From Candidatus Eremiobacteraceae bacterium (lineage in GTDB: Bacteria; Vulcanimicrobiota; Vulcanimicrobiia; Eremiobacterales; Eremiobacteraceae): a stretch of 64,000 nucleotides of DNA. The position numbers and the translations under genes were made by a program. The DNA is taken from positions 1-64,000 of the forward strand of contig DATFYX010000011.1 of NCBI GenBank assembly GCA_035314825.1, read 5' to 3'. The notes under the pieces were generated by a model. It was not told the DNA's origin, made no database searches, and saw only the letters and a list, made by a program, of their open reading frames with translations. This document shows, in pieces, positions 15,991 to 63,537 of this stretch (its first letter is position 1; each line of letters begins with the position of its first letter).

Positions 15991-16035
15991 CATGCAGCGT
16001 CCAACATCTTGGCGGGCGTCGGGCGCAAGAAAGGT

Positions 16036-16061
16036 CCCGCGCTCAAGAGCGCGGGACTACA
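16036..16061 (-). repeat. REP-like palindrome, family C
   Basis: The stem arms CCCGCGCTC and GAGCGCGGG are separated by AA and followed on the plus strand by ACTACA. Read on the minus strand it is TGTAGT followed by the hairpin. It is 9 bases from a family B copy, forming a tandem pair. Confidence 0.65.
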
Positions 16062-38114: not shown

Positions 38115-39116
38115 CTACAACCCTTCGTAGAAACCGGCGCCGAGCTGCGCCGGCGGATCCGGCGACGCCGATGCGAGGTTGCGATGCAGCGCTGCGAGCG
38201 CGTGCACCGCATCGATGCGCGACACCAAGGTGAACCGCACGCGGTCGCCGGGCCGCAGCTGTCCGGCGCGCGGAACGTCTGCTGCGATCGTGCACGCAGC
38301 CGTCGCGTAGCCGCCCGTCGTCTGGTGTTCTGCGAGCAGCATGACCGGCAGTCCGGCGCTGGTGATTTGCACGCACCCGGCATACGCACCCGCCGAGATC
38401 ACGTCGGTCGGGCGGTCGAGCGCAAGCGCCTCGCCCTCGAGCTGCAGGCCTTGGCGTGTGGACCGGCTCGAGACGCCGTACGAGCGCGCGAACAGCTCGT
38501 GCCACGCGGCGTCGGAGAGCGATGCTCGGTGCGGCCCAGGCAAGACGCGCACGATCGTCGAGGGATCCCAGTCTGGGATCGTCTCGGGCGCATAGCACAG
38601 CGGGGTCGAAGCCGCGCTGGGCGGGTCCAGGGAACGAGCTACTACGCTAAGGATGTCGCCGGTGCGCAGCGCCCGGCCGCGATAGCCCCCGAAGCCCGCG
38701 CCCAGATCCGTCGAAGCGCTCCCTAAGACAAGCGGCACCTCGATGCCGCCATCGACAGCCAGGTACGAACGCGCGCCGCGTTCTGCTGCGCCGATCTCGA
38801 TCTTCGCGCCGTCGCGCACTTCCTGCGCCTGCCAGCGCGCCGCCGGCACGCCGTCGATCAGCAGAGAGGCGACCGCGCCGGTCACCGCGATCGCGGCGTC
38901 GCATTGCAGCTCGAACTCCGCGCCCGTCAGCGTGGTTTCGATGAGCGCGGCGCCCGTCGGATTGCCGACCAGCAGGTTCGCGGCGCTCGCGCTGTACCAA
39001 TCAGCGGCGCCTGACGGCGACACGCCGAAGCGCGCCACGTCGCGGCGACCCAGATCTTGCACCGTCGAGAGCGCCCCGGGCGCAAGCACGCGCAGCGCGC
39101 GCTGCGAAGTCACCAC
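38115..39116 (-). CDS. pxpC: 5-oxoprolinase subunit PxpC (KipA/biotin-dependent carboxyltransferase family)
   Basis: A 333-aa protein with the family N-terminus LRVLAPGALSTVQDLGRRDVARFGVSPSGAADWYSASAANLLVGN. Conserved blocks IRVLPGPH-like (VRVLPGPHR), SSRSTRQGLQLEG and MLLAEHQTTGGYATAACTIAADVPRAGQLRPGDRVRF follow. It overlaps pxpB by 7 bases. A stretch VVARS at 38621-38646 (minus) is identical to the peptide encoded by family B REPs and may be a remnant insertion. Confidence 0.92.
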   Translation of the reverse strand: MVTSQRALRVLAPGALSTVQDLGRRDVARFGVSPSGAADWYSASAANLLVGNPTGAALIETTLTGAEFELQCDAAIAVTGAVASLLIDGVPAARWQAQEVRDGAKIEIGAAERGARSYLAVDGGIEVPLVLGSASTDLGAGFGGYRGRALRTGDILSVVARSLDPPSAASTPLCYAPETIPDWDPSTIVRVLPGPHRASLSDAAWHELFARSYGVSSRSTRQGLQLEGEALALDRPTDVISAGAYAGCVQITSAGLPVMLLAEHQTTGGYATAACTIAADVPRAGQLRPGDRVRFTLVSRIDAVHALAALHRNLASASPDPPAQLGAGFYEGL

Positions 39117-39787
39117 GCCACCTCTGCGACCGCGTCACCGACGCGCGAGACTGCGGCGAATCTCACCTCGTCGCCCGGCGCGAACAACGCGGGCGGCTCG
39201 TGCGCCGGATCGAAGATCGCCGCGCTGGTGGTGCCGATGAGCCGCCAGCCGCCCGGCGATGCCGTGGGGTAGATGCCGCACTGCGTGCCGGCCACTGCGA
39301 CGCTGCCCGCGGGCACACGGTCGCGCGGCGCCGGCCGTCGCGGCGCGCCGAGCTCGGGCGGCAAGCCGAGCAGATACGGAAAGCCGGCGATGAAGCCGAG
39401 AAACGCGACGTGGAACTGCGCGGCGCACAGCGTCCTGACGTATTCTTTCGCGCTCGTGCCGACCTCGGCGGCTGTGTCTTGCAGATCCACGCCGTGGTCC
39501 TCGCCGAAGCACACTCCCACGCGGATGCGTCTGGGCGTGAGCACGATGCGCTCTTCGCCTTCTTGCGCGCAGCCGCGCAGGCACGCCAGCGCGATGGCGA
39601 GGTCGAGCCGCGCCGGATCGAAACGCACGAGCACCGAGGCGTACGCGCCGACCACGTCGAGCGCGGCGTCGCCGAAGCGTTCGCGCGCCAGCGCCGCGAC
39701 CGACCAGACCCGGCGCACCGTGGCGAGGTCGATGACGTCGCCGAGGATGGCGATCACCGCGGAGTCGCCGGCGGGTTCGATCCTCAC
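39110..39787 (-). CDS. pxpB: 5-oxoprolinase subunit PxpB (KipI family)
   Basis: A 225-aa protein with the KipI/AHS1 signature: EPAGDSAVIAILGD at the start, ACLRGCAQEGEERI, then IRVGVCFGEDHGVDLQDTAAEVG, VAFLGFIAGFPYLLGLPPELGAPRRPAPRDRVPAGSVAVAGTQCGIYPTASPGGWRLIG. It is the first gene of the pxpB-pxpC-pxpA-rimP run. Two family A REPs lie upstream of its start. Confidence 0.93.
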   Translation of the reverse strand: MRIEPAGDSAVIAILGDVIDLATVRRVWSVAALARERFGDAALDVVGAYASVLVRFDPARLDLAIALACLRGCAQEGEERIVLTPRRIRVGVCFGEDHGVDLQDTAAEVGTSAKEYVRTLCAAQFHVAFLGFIAGFPYLLGLPPELGAPRRPAPRDRVPAGSVAVAGTQCGIYPTASPGGWRLIGTTSAAIFDPAHEPPALFAPGDEVRFAAVSRVGDAVAEVAW

Positions 39788-39794
39788 GTCGTGC

Positions 39795-39856
39795 GCGGTC
39801 GAATAAATTCGACCGCTCCATGGGTTGCGGACGGTCGAATGATTTCGACCGCTACA
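39795..39856 (-). repeat. Two tandem REP-like palindromes, family A, between divergent genes
   Basis: Copy one is 39795-39820 with loop AA and tail GCTCCA; copy two is 39831-39856 with one mismatch in the right arm (TTTCGACC) and tail GCTACA. The second tail gives a full GTAG on the minus strand, linking family A with families B and C. They fill most of the space between pxpB and the DUF255 gene. Confidence 0.78.
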
Positions 39857-39876
39857 ACGGCGAAGCGGGTGCGACC

Positions 39877-41667
39877 ATGGCCGCCAAACTCCATTTCTCC
39901 CCCCGCCCCAATCGCGCCGCCGAGATCAACTGGCAGCAATGGGGACCCGATTCGTTCGCTCACGCGCAGGCCGAACACAAACCTGTGTTGTTGGCGATCT
40001 CGGCCGTGTGGTGCCACTGGTGCCACGTGATGGACGAGACCTCGTATTCCGATCCTGCGGTGATCGACCTCATCAACGACCGGTATGTGCCTATCCGGGT
40101 CGACAACGACCAACGCCCCGATATCAATGCGCGCTATAACATGGGCGGCTGGCCCACCACGGTGATCCTCACGCCCGAAGGCGAGATTCTCCGCGGAGGC
40201 ACGTACATACCGCCTGAGGCCATGCTGCCGTTCCTCCAGCAGGTCTCCGATCTCTATGCCGAGCCGGCCAACCGGCTCGAATTCGCGCGGCGCATCGCCG
40301 AGGTGCGCGCCAAGCGAACCCACACGCCTACAGCGCCAGCGGGCCAGCTGGACGCCGGCGCGCCGGCAGCGATCGTCGCCGCGGCGTCCGAGGCGTTCGA
40401 TGACGAGTTCGGCGGCTTCGGCACCGAGCCGAAGTTCCCGCAGGCGGACGTGCTGCAATTCCTCTTGGACTTCTACAGCCGCCACCCGGACGGGCGCGTG
40501 CAGACGATGGTGCAGATGTCACTGCGGGCGATGGCGGGCGGCGGCATGTACGACCACGTCGAAGGCGGCTTCTTCCGCTATTCGACCACACGCGATTTTG
40601 GCGTTCCGCATTTCGAGAAGATGCTCGAAGACTTGGGCGGCCTGCTGCTCGCCTGCGCGCGCGCAAGCGCGCTCTTCGGCGACGCGGCGCTCGGGCGGGT
40701 CGCGGTCGACACCAAACGCTACTTGGACGCGACCCTGTGGAGCGCCGACCGGCGCGGCTATGGCGGCAGCCAGGATGCTGATGAGACGTATTATCAGCTC
40801 GATAAGGACGGTCGAATGAATTCGACCGCTCCATATGTCGATGGGACGATTTATACGTCGTGGAACGCCGAGGCCGCGCATGCGCTGATCTGCGCCGGCC
40901 CGCTGCTGTCGGCGCAGGGCGAGGATGCCGGCGCGTGGATCGGGCGCGGCGTCGAGATCCTCGAGATGCTGTGGTCGAGCATGCTCGTCGACGGTCTGAT
41001 GACCCGCTATTCGGACGGCACGGCGCACGTGCGCGGCTTGCTCGGCGATCAGGCGTGGAGCGCATGGGCTGCGCTTGCGGCCTTCCAAGCCACCGGCGAG
41101 ATCCGCTGGCTCGAACGCGCCCTGTCCCTGGTCCGCGCAAGCGACCCGCTCTACGACCAGTCTGCGGGGGCGTATCTCGACCGGCTGCCCGATGCCGCCG
41201 AGCCTGGCCGCGTGTCGGAGCCCGTCGCGCCGATGCCCGAAAACGCGCTCATGGCGCGGGTGCTGATAGCGCTGAGCGCCTTCACGGGCGAGGAAGCCTT
41301 GGCGGAGCGGGCGCGCACCGTGCTCGAGCGCTTCACCGCGACGTACGCTCGCATGGGAGTGTTCGGCGCGTCCTACGCGGGCGCGGTGCTCGACGCGTTA
41401 GAGCCGCCGTTCGACATCAAGCTGGTGGGCGAGCACGGCTCCGCCGCGATGAACGCGCTGCGGGACCGCTTGCTCGCCGTCGCAGCGCCGCCGCTGCGCC
41501 TCAACGCGATCGATCCGCGCGATCGGGCGCGCGCGAGCGCTCTCGATGCCGGCGAGACCGACGCGCCACGGGCAATCGTGTGTCGCGGTGCGGTATGCTT
41601 CGCGAGCGCGAAGGAGGCCGAGGAAGTTTTGGCCGCCGTGCGCCGAGCGGACTCGCCCGCGTCTTGA
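39877..41667 (+). CDS. DUF255 thioredoxin-domain protein (YyaL/SSP411 family)
   Basis: A 596-aa protein. An N-terminal thioredoxin-like DUF255 domain has the active-site motif WCHWCHVMDETSY (Cys-x-x-Cys) and NMGGWPTTVILTPEG. A six-hairpin glycosidase-like helical barrel follows: DEFGGFGTEPKFPQ, GGGMYDHVEGGFFRYSTTRDFGVPHFEKMLED and MPENALMARVL. Function of the family is unclear. ATG 39877 begins MAAKLHFSPRPN; an in-frame ATG at 39820 lies inside the REPs. A complete family A REP at 40808-40833 is translated in frame (DGRMNSTAP). Confidence 0.88.
   Translation: MAAKLHFSPRPNRAAEINWQQWGPDSFAHAQAEHKPVLLAISAVWCHWCHVMDETSYSDPAVIDLINDRYVPIRVDNDQRPDINARYNMGGWPTTVILTPEGEILRGGTYIPPEAMLPFLQQVSDLYAEPANRLEFARRIAEVRAKRTHTPTAPAGQLDAGAPAAIVAAASEAFDDEFGGFGTEPKFPQADVLQFLLDFYSRHPDGRVQTMVQMSLRAMAGGGMYDHVEGGFFRYSTTRDFGVPHFEKMLEDLGGLLLACARASALFGDAALGRVAVDTKRYLDATLWSADRRGYGGSQDADETYYQLDKDGRMNSTAPYVDGTIYTSWNAEAAHALICAGPLLSAQGEDAGAWIGRGVEILEMLWSSMLVDGLMTRYSDGTAHVRGLLGDQAWSAWAALAAFQATGEIRWLERALSLVRASDPLYDQSAGAYLDRLPDAAEPGRVSEPVAPMPENALMARVLIALSAFTGEEALAERARTVLERFTATYARMGVFGASYAGAVLDALEPPFDIKLVGEHGSAAMNALRDRLLAVAAPPLRLNAIDPRDRARASALDAGETDAPRAIVCRGAVCFASAKEAEEVLAAVRRADSPAS
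40808..40833 (-). repeat. REP-like palindrome, family A, inside the DUF255 coding region
   Basis: A complete copy with arms GGTCGAAT and ATTCGACC, loop GA and tail GCTCCA lies in frame within the gene. It encodes GRMNSTAP near residue 312, between YYQLDKD and YVDGTIY. The reading frame is uninterrupted on both sides. Confidence 0.85.
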
Positions 41668-42465: not shown

Positions 42466-42600
42466 GCGCGTTCAAAAGAACGCGCTATTACGACTTAGCG
42501 CGCTACTACAATTGTAGTAGCGCGTCGCTTTTCGTGCGCGGAGATGTTGCGCGTTCAGAGAACGCGCTACTACAAAGACGCCCGCGCTCAAGAGCGCGGG
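42466..42600 (-). repeat. Cluster of REP-like palindromes, families B and C
   Basis: The cluster holds a B copy at 42466-42491 with tail TATTAC and a B half-copy ending TACTACA at 42510. An inverted copy starts TGTAGTAG at 42513, and these two tails form a perfect palindrome centred on AATT. A full B copy follows at 42549-42574, and a C copy at 42581-42600 lacks the usual tail. The mix of direct and inverted copies resembles the BIME arrangements of REP elements. Confidence 0.7.
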
Positions 42601-54720: not shown

Positions 54721-55845
54721 CTATCCTTTGTAGGTGATGCGGTAGATCGAGCCGCTCAGATCGTCGCTGACGTAGAGCGATCCGTCCTGGCCGACCGCCA
54801 CGCCCACCGGGCGTCCGCTGACGCTCTGGTTCTCGCTGAGCCAACCAGTCGCGAAATCTTCGACGTGATCGGGCCGGCCGTTCTTGAAGAAGACGGCTAC
54901 CACTTTGTATCCGGTCTTCACCGAGCGGTCCCAGGAGCCGTGGTAGGCGACGAACAGCGCCCCGCGATAACGCGCCGGAAACTGCGAGCCGTGGTAGAAC
55001 GCGATCTGCAGCGGCGCGGAGTGCGCCTGGAGATTCAGCGCGGACGGCTGCGTGCCCACGCACTTGGTCGGATCCTTATACTCGGGATTGGGTACGCGAT
55101 CACCGTCGCCGGCATAGCAGTAGGGCCAGCCGTAGTTCCCACCGTCCACGATCTGGTCCACTTCGTCGGGCGGCAGGTCGTCGCCGATGTTATCGCGCCC
55201 GTTGACAACGGCCCACAATCTGCCGGCGTCGTCGAACGCGAGGCCCGACGCGTTGCGCAAGCCAAACGCATAGATGCGGCCGTTGCCGCCCTCCGCGTCG
55301 TAGCGCAGGACGGTCGCAAAGCGCGGGTCGGTTTCGGCGCAGACGTTGCACGTCGAGCCGCTCGAGACGAAGATCGTGCCGTCGGCGGCGATCGCGATGG
55401 CGCGGTGATTGTGCACTCCGCCTTCGGGCATGTTCGAGAACAGCGTCTCGTGCGGCGCCCCTTCGGCTGGAGGATAGTGCAACTTGGTCACACCCGACCA
55501 CGACGCCACGTAGAGATCGTCGCCGTGAAATACAAGGCCATGGGCGACCGGCAGCCCGCTGATCACCACTTTAGGTTCTGCGTCGGGTGCCATTCCGGGA
55601 GAAATCGCGACGACACGGTCGCGTCCTAGCTCGGACACGACGACATCGCCGTTCGGTGCGACCGCCAGGAAGCGCGCGGTGGGCACCCTGCTCGACACGA
55701 TCGAGATGGTGAATCCGAGCGGAACGTGGAGTTGACCGACAGGCACCGCCGCGCGTGCGGTGCAACCGGCGAGGGCGACGCAAAGGGCGAGGAACGCGAT
55801 GAGCGGTCGAATGAATTCGACCGCTCCATTTCTGCTCTTAACCAT
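54721..55845 (-). CDS. Sorbosone-dehydrogenase-like beta-propeller lipoprotein (second copy)
   Basis: A 374-aa lipoprotein with a PQQ-dependent sugar/sorbosone dehydrogenase-like propeller: GRDRVVAISPG, GLPVAHGLVFHGDDLYVASW, HNHRAIAIAADGTIFVSSGS, AFGLRNASGLAFDDAGRLWAVVNGRDNIGDDLPPDEVDQI and VGVAVGQDGSLYVSDDLSGSIYRITY. The signal ends LALCVALAGC. ATG 55845 lies within the upstream gene's last codons (TATGGTTAA). The 5' end of the signal sequence (NGAVEFIRP) is encoded by a family A REP at 55803-55828. It is a paralog of the next gene upstream. Confidence 0.88.
   Translation of the reverse strand: MVKSRNGAVEFIRPLIAFLALCVALAGCTARAAVPVGQLHVPLGFTISIVSSRVPTARFLAVAPNGDVVVSELGRDRVVAISPGMAPDAEPKVVISGLPVAHGLVFHGDDLYVASWSGVTKLHYPPAEGAPHETLFSNMPEGGVHNHRAIAIAADGTIFVSSGSTCNVCAETDPRFATVLRYDAEGGNGRIYAFGLRNASGLAFDDAGRLWAVVNGRDNIGDDLPPDEVDQIVDGGNYGWPYCYAGDGDRVPNPEYKDPTKCVGTQPSALNLQAHSAPLQIAFYHGSQFPARYRGALFVAYHGSWDRSVKTGYKVVAVFFKNGRPDHVEDFATGWLSENQSVSGRPVGVAVGQDGSLYVSDDLSGSIYRITYKG
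55803..55828 (-). repeat. REP-like palindrome, family A, inside a lipoprotein signal sequence
   Basis: A complete copy with arms GGTCGAAT and ATTCGACC and tail GCTCCA lies in frame just after the start codon of the downstream sorbosone-dehydrogenase-like gene. It supplies the only nearby Arg of the signal n-region (EFIRP). Confidence 0.8.
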
Positions 55846-57055
55846 AGGTGACGCGATAGATATACCCATTTGAGTCGTCGCTGATGTACAGCGAACCATC
55901 TGGTCCGACCGCCAGCCCGACGGGACGGCCGGTGACCGAGTTGCCCGGCGTCAGCCAGCCCGAGACGAAATCCATCGGCGCACCGGGCACGCCGCCGGCG
56001 AACGGCACGAAGACGACCTTGTACCCGGTTGGCGGCGAGCGATCCCACGACCCGTGGAACGCGACGAACGCGCCGCCCTTATATGTGGCCGGGAACATCG
56101 AGCCGTAATAGAACACGATGCCGAGCGGCGCGGAATGCGCCTGCAGCGGCTGCGTCGTCGGCAGCTGTCCGTTGCAGTTGGGCGCAGGCGTCGCGAGGTC
56201 GGGGTTGATCTGGCGCGCGCCGGTCAGGTCCGGATAGCACTGCGGCCACCCGTAGTTACCGCCGGCGACGACCTTATCGAATTCGTCAACCGGAAGATCG
56301 GTGTGGTTCGGAGGGAGATCGTCGCGCTGATTGACGACCATCCACAGTTGTCCGCTCTGATCGAACGCGAGGCCGCTGCCGTTGCGCACGCCGGTCGCGT
56401 AGATCTGCGGGTTCGAGCCGTCGCCGTTGGCGTGGATGATCGTCGCCAAGATCTGCGAGCCCTCGTTGCCGAGGTTCGTATCCGAACCCGACGATTCGAA
56501 GATGCTTCCGTCGGGAGCGATCGCCAGCGAGCGGTTGTTGTGATCGCCGTTTTGCGGCAGGCCGTTATACAGCGTCTGGGTCGTGGTGCCGGCCGGATAG
56601 TTCTTGATCACGCTGAAGCCGGTCCAGGTCGCGATATAAAGATCGTTGCCGTGAAAACCGAGCCCGTGGGGCCGCTGTAGCCCACTGGCAAGCACGGTCG
56701 GAGGCGCGTCGTATGGCGCGCCCGCCTTGATCGCTACGACCTGGCCGTTGCCGGTTTCCGAGATGATCAGGTCGCCGTTGGGCGCGACGGTCATGAAACG
56801 CGCGCCCGGCACGTTTTCCGCCACCATCGTGATCTTGAAGCCCGGGAGCAGATTCAGTGCCATCGGCGGGGCCGGGCCGGATGTTGGCGAGCCGGAGGGT
56901 GAGGGTGCCTGGGTGGGACCGACAGGCGTCATTGGACCTGGCATCGACGAGGACGTGCAGGCCGCCAGAAATGAGGCGATGGTGAGAGACATGGCTAGCG
57001 CGTTCAAGGAACGCGCTACTACATTTGGGTTTGATGCATCTAATTCGCGCTTCAT
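55838..57055 (-). CDS. Sorbosone-dehydrogenase-like beta-propeller lipoprotein (first copy)
   Basis: A 405-aa lipoprotein with the same propeller as its downstream paralog (HGLGFHGNDLYIATW, HNNRSLAIAPDGSIFESSGSD, GVRNGSGLAFDQSGQLWMVVNQRDDLPP, VGLAVGPDGSLYISDDSNGYIYRVTYG). The lipobox is FLAACTSS, and a Pro/Ser/Gly-rich linker follows. ATG 57055 is supported by AAGGG about 5 bases upstream. A family B REP at 56998-57023 is translated as VVARSLNA in the signal n-region. Enzymatic activity with PQQ is inferred from the family. Confidence 0.88.
   Translation of the reverse strand: MKRELDASNPNVVARSLNALAMSLTIASFLAACTSSSMPGPMTPVGPTQAPSPSGSPTSGPAPPMALNLLPGFKITMVAENVPGARFMTVAPNGDLIISETGNGQVVAIKAGAPYDAPPTVLASGLQRPHGLGFHGNDLYIATWTGFSVIKNYPAGTTTQTLYNGLPQNGDHNNRSLAIAPDGSIFESSGSDTNLGNEGSQILATIIHANGDGSNPQIYATGVRNGSGLAFDQSGQLWMVVNQRDDLPPNHTDLPVDEFDKVVAGGNYGWPQCYPDLTGARQINPDLATPAPNCNGQLPTTQPLQAHSAPLGIVFYYGSMFPATYKGGAFVAFHGSWDRSPPTGYKVVFVPFAGGVPGAPMDFVSGWLTPGNSVTGRPVGLAVGPDGSLYISDDSNGYIYRVTYG
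56998..57023 (-). repeat. REP-like palindrome, family B, inside a lipoprotein signal sequence
   Basis: The arms GCGCGTTC and GAACGCGC with loop AAG, followed by TACTACA on the plus strand. It lies in frame near residues 12-19 of the first sorbosone-dehydrogenase-like lipoprotein and encodes VVARSLNA. Confidence 0.8.
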
Positions 57056-57172: not shown

Positions 57173-58267
57173 ATGCGAACGCGTATCATCTTCGCAATCG
57201 TGGCGGCCATCACCCTCGCTGGTTGTTCCGGCGGCGGCGCGGGCAGCCCGTTCTCCAATCCGTCGAACGGCAGCGGCGGAACCCAAACCCAGATGAGCCA
57301 ACAAGAAGCCGCGCAAACGGGGGCCAACTCGGCGATGTCCGAGATCGGTCGCGCCGGTCTGGACAGCTCGCTCTTCTCCGGCTCGGTCGGCGTCGTGCTG
57401 TCCACCCAGAAAGCGCCGATGTCGGTCCAGCCGGCCACGGCGTGCAACAACGGCGTCATCAAGACGGTGACGGTCATCAGCCCGACCGAGACGACCTACG
57501 ACGTGCAGCTCTTCTTCGACAACGCCTGCACGCAGCTGCGCCGCGACTCGCTCTCGGACGTGAAGATCCCGAATCCGTCGACCGAGAACATCACACGCAC
57601 GATCAAGAACTACAACAACTCCGGCCTGCTGCTCTCGACGCGCGTGGCCAACTACTCGGTCACCGGCAGCCCGGGGAACTTCTCGGCCGTCGTGACCAGC
57701 GCGCTGACCATCGGCACCGAGAGCTCGCCTGAAGAGCAAGACGGGCACCAGCTGACGGTCGCGCCGCAGAACGCCACCACCTGGACGATCGCCGGCAACT
57801 CGGCGCGCATCGAGAACATCGGCGTGCCGAGCATCAACGAGTCGTTCGGCGAGGCGGCGCTGCTGCAGAACACCACCGCGACGGTCGATCCGTCCAACGA
57901 CGTCACGTTCGCGGGCATGCGCAACAAGACGTTCTACAAAGGTGCGCTCGGCAGCCTGAGCATCCCGGCGAACCCGCCGTTCTCGGTCAGCGGCGGCACG
58001 CAGACCGGCGCAGGCTCGATCTCCGGTTCGGTCGAGTTCGACGCCAACGACAACCTGCTCAACGTCGCGCTCAACGGCACGCTCGCCAACGGCGACACGA
58101 TCGTGGTCACGAGCTCAGGCTCAGGTCCGACGATCGCCATCAACGGCACGATCTCCAGCGGCGGCACGACGCTTGCGACCTTCTCGGTCGACCGCTTCGG
58201 CGACGGCCTGATCACCTATGCGAACGGTTCGCAAGCGGTGATCATGGACTGGCACGTGGTCAAATAA
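57173..58267 (+). CDS. Lipoprotein of unknown function
   Basis: A 364-aa protein with a lipoprotein signal (IFAIVAAITLAGCSGGG). No family is recognised. The mature part is Ser/Thr/Asn/Gly-rich and beta-prone throughout (TVTVISPTETTYDVQLFFDNACTQL, VANYSVTGSPGNFSAVVTSALTIGTES, GSISGSVEFDANDNLLNVALNGTLANGD). Two cysteines in ATACNNG and NACTQL could pair. ATG 57173 is preceded by AAAGGG. It is divergent from the sorbosone-dehydrogenase-like pair, and a double REP and terminator follow. Confidence 0.7.
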   Translation: MRTRIIFAIVAAITLAGCSGGGAGSPFSNPSNGSGGTQTQMSQQEAAQTGANSAMSEIGRAGLDSSLFSGSVGVVLSTQKAPMSVQPATACNNGVIKTVTVISPTETTYDVQLFFDNACTQLRRDSLSDVKIPNPSTENITRTIKNYNNSGLLLSTRVANYSVTGSPGNFSAVVTSALTIGTESSPEEQDGHQLTVAPQNATTWTIAGNSARIENIGVPSINESFGEAALLQNTTATVDPSNDVTFAGMRNKTFYKGALGSLSIPANPPFSVSGGTQTGAGSISGSVEFDANDNLLNVALNGTLANGDTIVVTSSGSGPTIAINGTISSGGTTLATFSVDRFGDGLITYANGSQAVIMDWHVVK

Positions 58268-58269
58268 GG

Positions 58270-58312
58270 ACGGTCGAATAAATTCGACGGTCGAATAGAT
58301 TCGACCGCTACA
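58270..58312 (-). repeat. Fused double REP-like palindrome, family A
   Basis: Two family A copies share the central ATTCGACGGTCGAAT, so the first copy has lost its tail and the second ends GCTACA. It begins 3 bases after the lipoprotein stop and could be read as a compound stem-loop. Confidence 0.75.
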
Positions 58313-60451: not shown

Positions 60452-60982
60452 TTAGGCGCGTTTGCCGTTCTTGATGACCCACGGCATGTCGGCGTCGCAC
60501 GAGTACTTGCGCCAGCCGGGGAGCTTCACGCCGCCGAATTGGCCGAGGATACGCACTGCCGCCGTCGCCTTGGCCTTGCCGAACCCAGGCAGCGCGAGCA
60601 TGCGCTCGTAGACCTGCTCCGCGTCAGTCGTGCCTTCCCACACGCGCGCGCCTTTGCCGCCGTACTCCTTTGCGATCGTCGCGCACAGCGCGCGCACGCG
60701 CTTGGCCATCATGCCGGGATAGCGATGGATCGCGGGGCTTTCGCGGAACACTTTGTCGAGGCGCGCCGGCGGTATCGCCGCGATCTTCTTCGCGTCGATC
60801 GTGCCGAGCCGGCGACGCAGCTCGTATGGACCGCTCATCGCCTTCTCGGTGCGCACTTGCTGTTCGAGGCACAACCCGATCAGCAGCGCCGTGCCGTCTT
60901 TGGCGAGCAGCTCATTCGCGGCATCGTTGGGCGTGAACGGATACAAGGACTTTGCCATGGTGCGGCGCACTTTGTCCGCCAT
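60452..60982 (-). CDS. HhH-GPD family DNA-repair-like protein
   Basis: A 176-aa protein of the small HhH-GPD family (TIGR03252 type): FTPNDAANELLAKDGTALLIGLCLEQQVRTEKAMSGPYELRRRLG, then the helix-hairpin-helix LALPGFGKAKATAAVRILGQFGGVKLPGW. The usual Asp of glycosylases after the GPD loop is not obvious. It may recognise damaged bases. ATG 60982 overlaps the start of the divergent DUF885 gene; ATG 60958 (MAKSLYPF) is a likely alternative. Confidence 0.8.
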   Translation of the reverse strand: MADKVRRTMAKSLYPFTPNDAANELLAKDGTALLIGLCLEQQVRTEKAMSGPYELRRRLGTIDAKKIAAIPPARLDKVFRESPAIHRYPGMMAKRVRALCATIAKEYGGKGARVWEGTTDAEQVYERMLALPGFGKAKATAAVRILGQFGGVKLPGWRKYSCDADMPWVIKNGKRA

Positions 60983-62753
60983 GAGCCGTTCTCCCGTCAC
61001 GCGCGGCGCCTTTGTGCGCGGTGCGCTGTGCGTCATGCTCGTCGTGGCCGCGTGTGCGCCATTCTCCACAGCGACGCGCGCCGCGCAGACGGGTTCCGAT
61101 GCGTTTCAAAAACTTGTCGAACGGTATGTCGCTGAATCCGAAGCTCGCGATCCGCTCTTCGCCGACAGCATCGGCGTGCATACCTATGATGACAAACTGC
61201 CCGACTACTCGCCCAGCGGCCGCGCCGATACCGATGCGTGGGAGGCCGCTTGGCGCACCCAGTTCGCAGGGCTCGACAGCGCCAAGTTGACGCTTGGCGA
61301 GCGCGCGGATCTGCGCGCGCTGCTCGACCAGATCGACGCCGATCAGCTTGAGGCAAAGACGATCCGCCCGTACGAGACGGATCCTTCCATCTATACAGGG
61401 GCGATCGGCGATGCCGTCTACGAGCTCACGAGCCGCGACTACGCGCCGTTGGAGCAACGCCTGCAAAGCGTCGCGACGCGCATCCGTTCCATCCCGGATC
61501 TCGTGCGCGCGGCCGAGGCGTCGCTGTCGCATCCCACCCGCGTCGCCGCCGAGCTTGCCGTGCAGCAGAACCAGGGCAACATCGATCTGTACAGCCGCGA
61601 CCTGCCGGCGCTGGCCAAGTCCGCATCGGCGCAGACCCAAGCGATGCTCGAAGCCGATCTGCCGGCCGCGATCGCGAGCCTCAAGGATTTCCAGACGTTC
61701 CTCGCGGGCCCGCTGCTCGGGCAGGCCGACGCCAACCCGCGCGTCGGCGCCGCGGTGTTCGACGAGGAGCTGCGGCTGGTCGACGGCACGGATACGCCGC
61801 GCGACGTGCTGGTCGCCCGCGCCCGCGCTGACTTCGACCGCACGCGAAGAGAGATGCTGCGGCTCGCCACGCCGCTGTACCACAAACTGCTGCATGAAGA
61901 GCCGCCGCTTGAGTCCACCGAAGACGCGCAGATCGACGCGATCGTGAGGCCGGTGCTCGACAAGCTAGCGGATCATCATCCGGCGCGCGACGCGGTGCTG
62001 GCGACGGCCAAGAGCGATCTCGCCGGCATCCAGTCGTTCTTGGAACGCGACCCGGTCGTGCCGCTGCCCGTGCCAGACACGCTGCACGTCGCACCGACCC
62101 CTGAGTTCTTAGCAGGCGTCACGGGCGCCGGGCTGGATCCGCCCGGCCCGTTCACGCCGCTGGCCGGATCCTACTACTATATCGATGAGATCCCGGCGTC
62201 GTGGTCAGCCCAGCGCGTCGCCTCGTATCTGCGAGAGAACAACGACTACGAGATGCGCATCCTTTCGATCCACGAAGCGATCCCGGGCCATTACGTGCAG
62301 TACCGCTACAACGCCCTGACGCCTTCCCTCGTGCGCCGCGTGTGGCCAAACGGTTCGTTCGTCGAAGGCTGGGCGGTGTACGGCGAAGGCATGATGCTCG
62401 ACGCGGGGTACGGCGGCGGCGATGTTGCGCTGCGGTTGTTCCAATTGAAATGGCGCTTGCGCGAGTACGCCAACGCGATCATCGACGCCGAATACCATGC
62501 AGGCGATCTAAGCGAACAACAGTGCATGCGCTTGCTCGCGCAGGCCTTTCAGGAACCTGCGGAGGCCCAGACGAAGTGGCATCGCCTGGAGCTTTCGCAC
62601 GATCAGTTATCGAGCTACTTCGTCGGACTCGACGCGATCAGCCAGGCGCGGTTCGCTCACCCGGGCAGCGTCGCCGCCTTCAATAAGAGCCTGTTGGGCA
62701 TGGGCTCGGTCGAGCCGCGTTTCATCGAGGCGCTGCTGAACGCATCGCCGTAG
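60981..62753 (+). CDS. Secreted DUF885 family metallopeptidase-like protein
   Basis: A 590-aa protein with a signal peptide ending in a lipobox-like segment (ALCVMLVVAACAPF). The DUF885 HExxPGH motif is LSIHEAIPGHYVQYRYN. Conserved blocks FVEGWAVYGEGMMLDAG and QAFQEPAEAQTKWHRLELSHDQLSSYFVGL follow. It is paralogous to 49118-50905. ATG 60981 gives the signal peptide and shares bases with the ATG of the opposite-strand HhH-GPD gene. A longer frame upstream is antisense and rejected. Confidence 0.85.
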   Translation: MSRSPVTRGAFVRGALCVMLVVAACAPFSTATRAAQTGSDAFQKLVERYVAESEARDPLFADSIGVHTYDDKLPDYSPSGRADTDAWEAAWRTQFAGLDSAKLTLGERADLRALLDQIDADQLEAKTIRPYETDPSIYTGAIGDAVYELTSRDYAPLEQRLQSVATRIRSIPDLVRAAEASLSHPTRVAAELAVQQNQGNIDLYSRDLPALAKSASAQTQAMLEADLPAAIASLKDFQTFLAGPLLGQADANPRVGAAVFDEELRLVDGTDTPRDVLVARARADFDRTRREMLRLATPLYHKLLHEEPPLESTEDAQIDAIVRPVLDKLADHHPARDAVLATAKSDLAGIQSFLERDPVVPLPVPDTLHVAPTPEFLAGVTGAGLDPPGPFTPLAGSYYYIDEIPASWSAQRVASYLRENNDYEMRILSIHEAIPGHYVQYRYNALTPSLVRRVWPNGSFVEGWAVYGEGMMLDAGYGGGDVALRLFQLKWRLREYANAIIDAEYHAGDLSEQQCMRLLAQAFQEPAEAQTKWHRLELSHDQLSSYFVGLDAISQARFAHPGSVAAFNKSLLGMGSVEPRFIEALLNASP

Positions 62754-62778: not shown

Positions 62779-62804
62779 GCGGTCGAATGAATTCGACCGC
62801 TCCA
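62779..62804 (-). repeat. REP-like palindrome, family A
   Basis: The arms GGTCGAAT and ATTCGACC with loop GA, followed by GCTCCA. It lies 25 bases after the DUF885 stop and just before the ribosome site AGGAGG of the next gene. Confidence 0.8.
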
Positions 62805-62820
62805 CAGGAAAGGAGGATGC

Positions 62821-63537
62821 ATGCTGGCACCAATATTGATCAGCGCGGTGACCATTTTCGCATTCGCTGCCGCGCCCGCTCCGAGCGCCACCCCGGCGCC
62901 CGCCGCGCCCGCTGGGCCGCTGCGAGAGGTCACCTATAAAGTGTCCTTCAGCGACCGCACGTATAGCGGCGGCGAGCACTATTCCGGGTACTCGTCGCAG
63001 TCGAACGTCGTCGCGGATAGCGGCACCGTGACGGTCGACATCACCGGCGTGATCGGCGACGCGCTCGCAGTCGACGTCACCGAGATCATGAATAAGACCG
63101 GCACGCCCGCCAAGTACAGCGGCTCGGTCCTGCCGGACGGCTCCGTCAACTTCCCACCCGACTCGATCAAACCCGTGACGCGCGCGCTGCTGCAATACTT
63201 CGGCACGCAGTTCGTGCCGGCGGACAAGATCGCGCCCGATGCGACGTGGGATGTCAATGAGGAGCGCGGCGGCGTCTCCGTCAAGACGAACTACAAGGTC
63301 ACCAAGGTCGACGGCGCAGTCGTCACCCTGGCGGAGAAGCAGACGATCAAGATCGCCACGCAGAACGCGACCGTCACGACCGATGGGACCGTCACGTTGA
63401 AGCCCTCGCTGCTCGTGCCGATGAGCGGCGACTTGCACCAGGTGATCTCGCGCTTGTCCGTCTCGGGTGAGACCAGAGACGACGTGTCGATGCGCTTCGA
63501 TCGCTCGTCGGACAGCCGCGACGTGCCGGCCAAGTGA
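62821..63537 (+). CDS. Secreted protein of unknown function, first of a tandem pair
   Basis: A 238-aa protein with a signal sequence (APILISAVTIFAFAAAPAP) and an Ala/Pro-rich linker. The mature part is beta-rich (REVTYKVSFSDRTYSGGEHYSGY, ADSGTVTVDITGVIGDALAVDVTEIMN). It shares a diagnostic order with the next gene: TDDGTVEIDV-like versus SGTVTVDI, PPDSIKPVTRALLQYFGTQFVPADKI versus PEESLSDASLTLLRFFGVRFAADRS. No known family is recognised. AGGAGG lies 4 bases before ATG 62821. Confidence 0.7.
   Translation: MLAPILISAVTIFAFAAAPAPSATPAPAAPAGPLREVTYKVSFSDRTYSGGEHYSGYSSQSNVVADSGTVTVDITGVIGDALAVDVTEIMNKTGTPAKYSGSVLPDGSVNFPPDSIKPVTRALLQYFGTQFVPADKIAPDATWDVNEERGGVSVKTNYKVTKVDGAVVTLAEKQTIKIATQNATVTTDGTVTLKPSLLVPMSGDLHQVISRLSVSGETRDDVSMRFDRSSDSRDVPAK

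What the first reader, a model, noticed from the sequence alone, without database searches (positions are those of the whole stretch)
55803..57023. Paralogous lipoproteins each carry a different REP in the signal sequence
The two adjacent sorbosone-dehydrogenase-like genes both have a palindrome between start codon and lipobox: family B (VVARSLNA) in the upstream copy, family A (NGAVEFIRP) in the downstream copy. In each case the repeat supplies the Arg just before the hydrophobic core. Independent insertions at the same functional site suggest the repeats are tolerated, or useful, as n-region material, or that they control expression of these two genes.
Basis: partly seen in the sequence, partly recalled or inferred. 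Interest (0 to 1): 0.65.

Follow-up and report, generated by a model that had tools for sequence, protein, structure and literature searches.

The report
Repeat palindromes translated inside lipoprotein genes
Two neighbouring lipoprotein genes in an uncultured Eremiobacterota genome each carry a short mobile palindrome in the stretch that encodes the export signal, one example of a genome-wide habit in which these repeats insert in frame into ordinary genes and are tolerated as extra peptide.

Summary
Two adjacent GSDH-domain lipoprotein genes each carry a REP-like palindrome between start codon and lipobox: family B (window 56996-57023) in the upstream gene and family A (55804-55828) in the downstream gene. 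Family A has 184 copies in this genome and 6 in the sister species; family B has about 26. In the downstream gene no ATG/GTG/TTG lies between repeat and lipobox, so the repeat must be translated if the gene is. In the upstream gene the MKR start before the repeat matches the repeat-free sister ortholog, though an ATG directly after the repeat leaves some doubt.

Signal sequences are not special targets. In 800 kb of this genome, 88 GTAG/GGAG/GTGG-headed palindromes include 29 wholly inside called genes, adding peptides such as GRMNSTAP, RSNSFDR or VEFIRP to FabH, alanine racemase, NuoI, MutS and others. NuoI shows a clean 27-nt in-frame insertion. Gene starts are mildly favoured.

A second genus carries a different species-specific palindrome at the same codon of the downstream ortholog. 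Best reading: RAYT-type REPs spread recently, and n-regions, gene ends and loops are where insertions survive. Intragenic GTAG REPs and Rickettsia palindromic elements are known, so this is a new member of a known kind.

The parts
55838..57055 (-). Upstream GSDH/NHL lipoprotein gene, 405 aa, MKRELDASNPN[VVARSLNAL]AMSLTIASFLAAC; lipobox LAAC
   Evidence: Pfam PF07995 E 3e-14; ATG-AAG-CG start shared with the G001 ortholog
56996..57023 (-). Family B REP, TGTAGTAGCGCGTTCCTTGAACGCGCTA, codons 12-20 of the upstream gene
56990..56992 (-). In-frame ATG directly after the family B REP (alternative start MSLTIASFLAAC); no SD-like sequence in front and the REP stem ends a few bases upstream
   Evidence: sequence
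54721..55845 (-). Downstream GSDH lipoprotein gene, 374 aa, MVKSR[NGAVEFIRP]LIAFLALCVALAGC; its ATG overlaps the upstream stop (ATGGTTAA)
   Evidence: no ATG/GTG/TTG in frame between the REP and the lipobox Cys
55804..55828 (-). Family A REP, TGGAG-CGGTCGAAT-TC-ATTCGACCG, in codons 6-14 of the downstream gene
40809..40833 (-). Family A REP inside the 616-aa YyaL-like gene 39820-41667(+), read antisense as DGRMNSTAP; orthologs have the same length here, so it looks like a replacement rather than an insertion
39832..39856 (-). Family A REP at codons 5-11 (as called) of the YyaL-like gene; an ATG further on is a possible start
39796..39820 (-). Family A REP between the divergent genes 39110-39787(-) and 39820-41667(+)
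58288..58312 (-). Family A REP just after the stop of 57173-58267(+), beside a degenerate copy; the G006 ortholog has a different REP just after its stop
62779..62806 (-). Family A REP between 60753-62753(+) and 62821-63537(+); G006 has other REPs at both corresponding gene edges

Best explanation
The two palindromes are members of RAYT-type REP families (an asymmetric GTAG/GGAG head followed by a perfect hairpin) that multiplied recently in this Eremiobacterota lineage. They insert at many sites; copies survive in intergenic gaps, at gene edges, and inside genes wherever the reading frame stays open and the peptide falls on a loop, linker or terminus. Family A is open in five of its six frames. 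The signal-peptide n-region of these lipoproteins is such a permissive place, so both paralogs kept an insert and now translate it as a leader extension that signal peptidase II would remove with the rest of the signal peptide. Shown here: identity and copy number of the repeats, their recency, in-frame position, absence in the sister species, in-frame copies in other conserved genes, a clean 27-nt in-frame insertion in nuoI. Inferred: mobilisation by a RAYT (present in most family genomes, not found in this one), neutrality, and removal of the peptide during lipoprotein maturation.
For: 184 family A copies here, 6 in G001, none in 11 of 14 family genomes. G001 orthologs of both genes lack the repeats. 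29 of 88 headed palindromes in 800 kb lie wholly inside called CDS, 12 more overlap a start or stop; their peptides and hosts are. NuoI: exact 27-nt gap in G001. FabH: the repeat lies in a segment that G006 and G009 lack altogether. RAYT-like genes with conserved DHxH and Tyr in relatives are flanked by headed palindromes, including CGGTCGAG...CTCGACCG in G005, close to family A. Gene starts: 7 of 29 internal copies in the first 30 codons, expected 9.6%, P 0.018.
Against: No RAYT was found in G000, G001 or G002 by Pfam model or by a family-specific profile, so the mobiliser is missing or unassembled. In YyaL the repeat replaces sequence of equal length, which simple insertion does not explain. 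Two hits in adjacent paralogs plus one at the same codon in G006 is somewhat more than tolerance alone predicts. CDS calls come from a home-made gene finder and were not curated. No expression data.
Confidence: 0.78

Rival explanations
1. The repeats act on expression: hairpins in the first 20 codons (or in a 5' leader) slow initiation or stabilise mRNA, and selection keeps one in each gene of the pair.
For: The downstream leader folds better than all 200 shuffles (z -3.2). G006 has REPs 28-80 nt before the upstream gene start and one in the downstream leader; G009 has one 11 nt before its GTG.
Against: The upstream leader is not unusual (z -0.9); the G006 downstream leader is not either (z -0.9). 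G001 and seven other orthologs inspected have no such hairpin by the headed-palindrome scan. The same element is found deep inside unrelated genes.
Confidence: 0.12
2. Translation of the upstream gene starts at the ATG after the family B repeat, so that repeat is extragenic (5' leader) and only the downstream repeat is coding.
For: ATG at 56992 directly follows the repeat and gives MSLTIASFLAAC. The literature warns that many N-terminal REPs are misannotated extragenic ones (PMC3733652).
Against: That leader has no K/R and only 12 residues to the Cys; no SD-like sequence, and the repeat stem would lie against the ribosome site; the upstream start ATG-AAG-CG matches G001's MKR start.
Confidence: 0.25
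3. The site is a true hot spot, or REPs are replaced in place by whichever family is resident: positions are kept across genera while the palindrome changes.
For: G000 and G006 carry unrelated palindromes at +17..+42 and +15..+41 of the downstream start. Along the collinear zone, 5 of 6 G000 3'-edge sites are also occupied in G006 (P 0.016) and 3 of 5 5'-edge sites (P 0.07). YyaL repeat replaced equal-length sequence. Different REPs at about the same site of recB in two Xanthomonas species were reported (PMC3733652).
Against: G001, closer to G000, has neither repeat, so presence is not simply inherited. The zone is REP-dense in G006 (23% of gene starts have one nearby). One element (55804) is counted in both tests. 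Shared permissive gaps explain edge co-occurrence as well.
Confidence: 0.15

Closest known systems
GTAG REPs inside genes (Di Nocera et al. 2013, PMC3733652)
   Same: Short palindrome with a tetranucleotide head, species-specific families, mostly intergenic, some in frame inside ORFs with more at NH2 than COOH ends, repeats supplying stop codons, RAYT genes flanked by repeats.
   Different: Host phylum not treated in the sections read; family A head is mostly GGAG; about a third of copies inside genes here; no RAYT found in the same genome.
Rickettsia palindromic elements (RPE; Ogata, Claverie)
   Same: Palindromic repeats inserted in frame into conserved protein genes and read as extra peptide.
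   Different: RPEs as described are 105-146 bp (PMC2229807) or CGTC-headed RPE-4/RPE-6 (PMC3733652), and Rickettsia-specific; here the element is about 25-27 nt with a GTAG/GGAG head.
REPtrons / TnpA-REP (RAYT) systems (PMC8266576)
   Same: RAYT-like Y1 transposase genes flanked by arrays of headed palindromes in G003, G005, G006, G008, G009.
   Different: No such gene found in G000.

Membership tests
GTAG-type REP | Tetranucleotide head (GTAG and variants) 5' of a 20-50 nt palindrome | tested here: met
   Family A heads ATGGAG (27), ATGTAG (8) and minor forms; pyrimidine-loop orientation constant. Family B head TGTAG.
GTAG-type REP | High copy number, dispersed | tested here: met
   184 family A sites, about 26 family B sites
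GTAG-type REP | Mostly intergenic | tested here: met
   47 of 88 wholly outside called CDS although 94% of the sample is coding; 29 wholly inside
GTAG-type REP | RAYT (Y1 transposase) in the same genome | tested here: not met
   No match in G000 with PF01797 or profile A1; assembly 97% complete in 89 contigs. Found in ten of the fourteen family genomes.
Rickettsia palindromic element | In-frame insertion into conserved protein genes | tested here: met
   (nuoI 27-nt clean insertion)
Rickettsia palindromic element | RPE sequence/length class and occurrence in Rickettsia | tested here: not met
   About 25-27 nt elements with GGAG/GTAG heads in Ca. Eremiobacterota
Bacterial lipoprotein (signal peptidase II substrate) | Charged n-region, hydrophobic h-region, lipobox Cys | tested here: met
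   LAAC and LAGC with hydrophobic stretches; net n-region charge +1 and +2; cleavage itself not tested

The most novel reading that the evidence does not exclude
REP sites are inherited or re-used across genera while the palindrome at each site is swapped for the resident family, so that even a signal-peptide codon position is kept as a REP site; the equal-length replacement in the YyaL-like gene would be a trace of such swapping.
Probability: 0.12. Interest if true: 0.65.

Novelty: new member of a known kind. Interest (0 to 1): 0.42.

Why it matters
It extends protein-coding palindromic repeats to an uncultured soil lineage and shows natural insertion scanning of essential enzymes: about 25-27 nt inserts in FabH, alanine racemase, NuoI, TilS and others mark tolerant loops and termini. 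It also warns that gene callers will place starts wrongly where a repeat carries ATG (MNSTAP) or stop codons. Two genera with unrelated palindromes at one codon make REP site choice testable by comparison.

Tried and rejected
A 2,893-aa chimeric query failed; a 714-aa one worked. My first pattern for the G009 palindrome had the wrong loop and found nothing, corrected. A region request over 20 kb and two translations across stops failed. Rejected: chance palindromes (shuffles); that signal peptides are specially targeted (most N-terminal host genes are not exported); that conservation of ATGGTTAA between G000 and G006 proves the downstream start, because it also encodes the upstream C-terminus Tyr-Gly-stop. 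No paper on REPs in Eremiobacterota turned up in one search.

Full report
What is there. The minus strand carries two adjacent genes for GSDH/NHL-domain lipoproteins (PF07995). The upstream one (57055-55838) reads MKRELDASNPN[VVARSLNAL]AMSLTIASFLAAC; the bracket is a family B palindrome, TGTAGTAGCGCGTTCCTTGAACGCGCTA (56996-57023). The downstream one (55845-54721) reads MVKSR[NGAVEFIRP]LIAFLALCVALAGC; the bracket is a family A palindrome, TGGAGCGGTCGAATTCATTCGACCG (55804-55828).

Repeat families. Family A occurs 184 times in the 2.55-Mb assembly with 0 control hits, 6 times in the same-genus genome G001, weakly (3 two-mismatch sites) in G011 and not in the other family genomes. Family B has about 26 sites. 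Family A consensus is ATGGAG or ATGTAG + CGGTCGAAT-TY-ATTCGACCG with the pyrimidine loop nearly always in the same orientation to the head.

Start sites. In the downstream gene no ATG, GTG or TTG lies in frame between the repeat and the lipobox Cys, so the repeat is translated if the gene is. In the upstream gene two starts compete: ATG at 57055, which shares ATGAAGCG with the repeat-free G001 gene (MMKRLSWIGILIAASWLASC), and ATG at 56992 directly behind the repeat, which gives a short uncharged leader. I favour the first. G001's downstream ortholog reads MSSAERGRIVAIMLCALTGLSAC, also without a repeat.

The phenomenon is general. I sampled 800 kb of the genome with a simple codon-usage gene finder. 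Of 88 headed palindromes, 47 lie outside called genes, 12 overlap a start or stop and 29 lie wholly inside, 7 of these in the first 30 codons against 9.6% expected (P 0.018). Peptides such as GRMNSTAP, GRINSTAP, RSNSFDR, RSNEFDR and VEFIRP appear in genes I recognise as alanine racemase, FabH, NuoC, NuoI, TilS, RluD, a YyaL-like protein and MutS (N-terminus) (names from sequence recognition, not from a family search). Orthologs in G001, G006 and G009 show that most of these sites are variable loops or termini. In nuoI, G001 has an exact 27-nt gap where G000 carries GATGTAGCGGTCGAATTTATTCGACCG, a clean in-frame insertion. In the YyaL-like gene the repeat occupies sequence of unchanged length (DGRMNSTAPY against DGRANAEAPY in G001), so replacement also occurs.

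Same place, other palindromes. In G006, another genus, the downstream ortholog reads MVKSKCG[MPDFSLA]LIFAALMVLSLPAC around GCCAGACTTTAGTCTGGC, a palindrome found 17 times in G006 and nowhere else in the family. An ATG inside that repeat means its start is less certain than in G000. Two copies of a third palindrome lie 28-80 nt before the G006 upstream gene, and G009 has yet another, in a family of about ten, ending 11 nt before its GTG start. Base rates temper this: REPs lie within -80..+60 of 5.4% of gene starts in G000 (11% on this contig), 12% in G006 (23% on the collinear contig) and 4% in G009, but within the first 25 codons of only about 1% in G000. Along the collinear zone, gene edges occupied in G000 tend to be occupied in G006 (3' edges P 0.016, 5' edges P 0.07, one element counted twice). 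Shared permissive gaps are the simplest reading; in-place turnover is possible.

Mobiliser. Y1 transposase genes of RAYT type, with DHxH and a conserved Tyr, occur in most family genomes. In G003, G005, G006, G008 and G009 they are flanked by headed palindromes; G005's, CGGTCGAG..CTCGACCG behind GGAG, resembles family A. None was found in G000, G001 or G002, so family A is either orphaned or its RAYT is unassembled.

Function. I see tolerance, not use: the hosts are unrelated, the sister species does without, and hairpin folding is exceptional only for the downstream leader. Comparison with the literature: intragenic GTAG REPs, including N-terminal ones and different REPs at about one site of recB in two Xanthomonas species, were described in PMC3733652; in-frame RPEs in Rickettsia are reviewed in PMC2229807. 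This is a new member of that kind.

Noticed in passing
window 10493-62806 (all 14 headed palindromes); G006:C15:1-100000 (L184-L188): All headed palindromes of the window's contig point the same way (0 plus, 18 minus over 84 kb, P 8e-6), and in the collinear, same-orientation G006 contig 53 of 54 do too (P 6e-15), although families differ and gene strands are mixed. Other contigs are mixed. This suggests a replication-strand effect, as expected for single-strand transposition, in a REP-dense zone.
   Followed up: partly
window 40809-40833: Family A repeat in the YyaL-like gene replaces equal-length sequence conserved in three relatives instead of adding to it.
   Followed up: partly
G000:C41:40168-40539 and 40550-41317 (L118): Two neighbouring genes are called with their ATG inside a family A repeat (MNSTAP...), so the repeat may supply start codons.
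   Followed up: no
L067, L074 (G005), L068, L073, L077 (G009), L069 (G006), L070 (G008), L071 (G003): RAYT-like genes with flanking arrays of headed palindromes, each genome with its own families.
   Followed up: partly
   Followed up: no
window 16035-16061 and 42470-42600: Further GTAG-headed or GC-rich palindromes related to family B, including an inverted pair around 42500.
   Followed up: no
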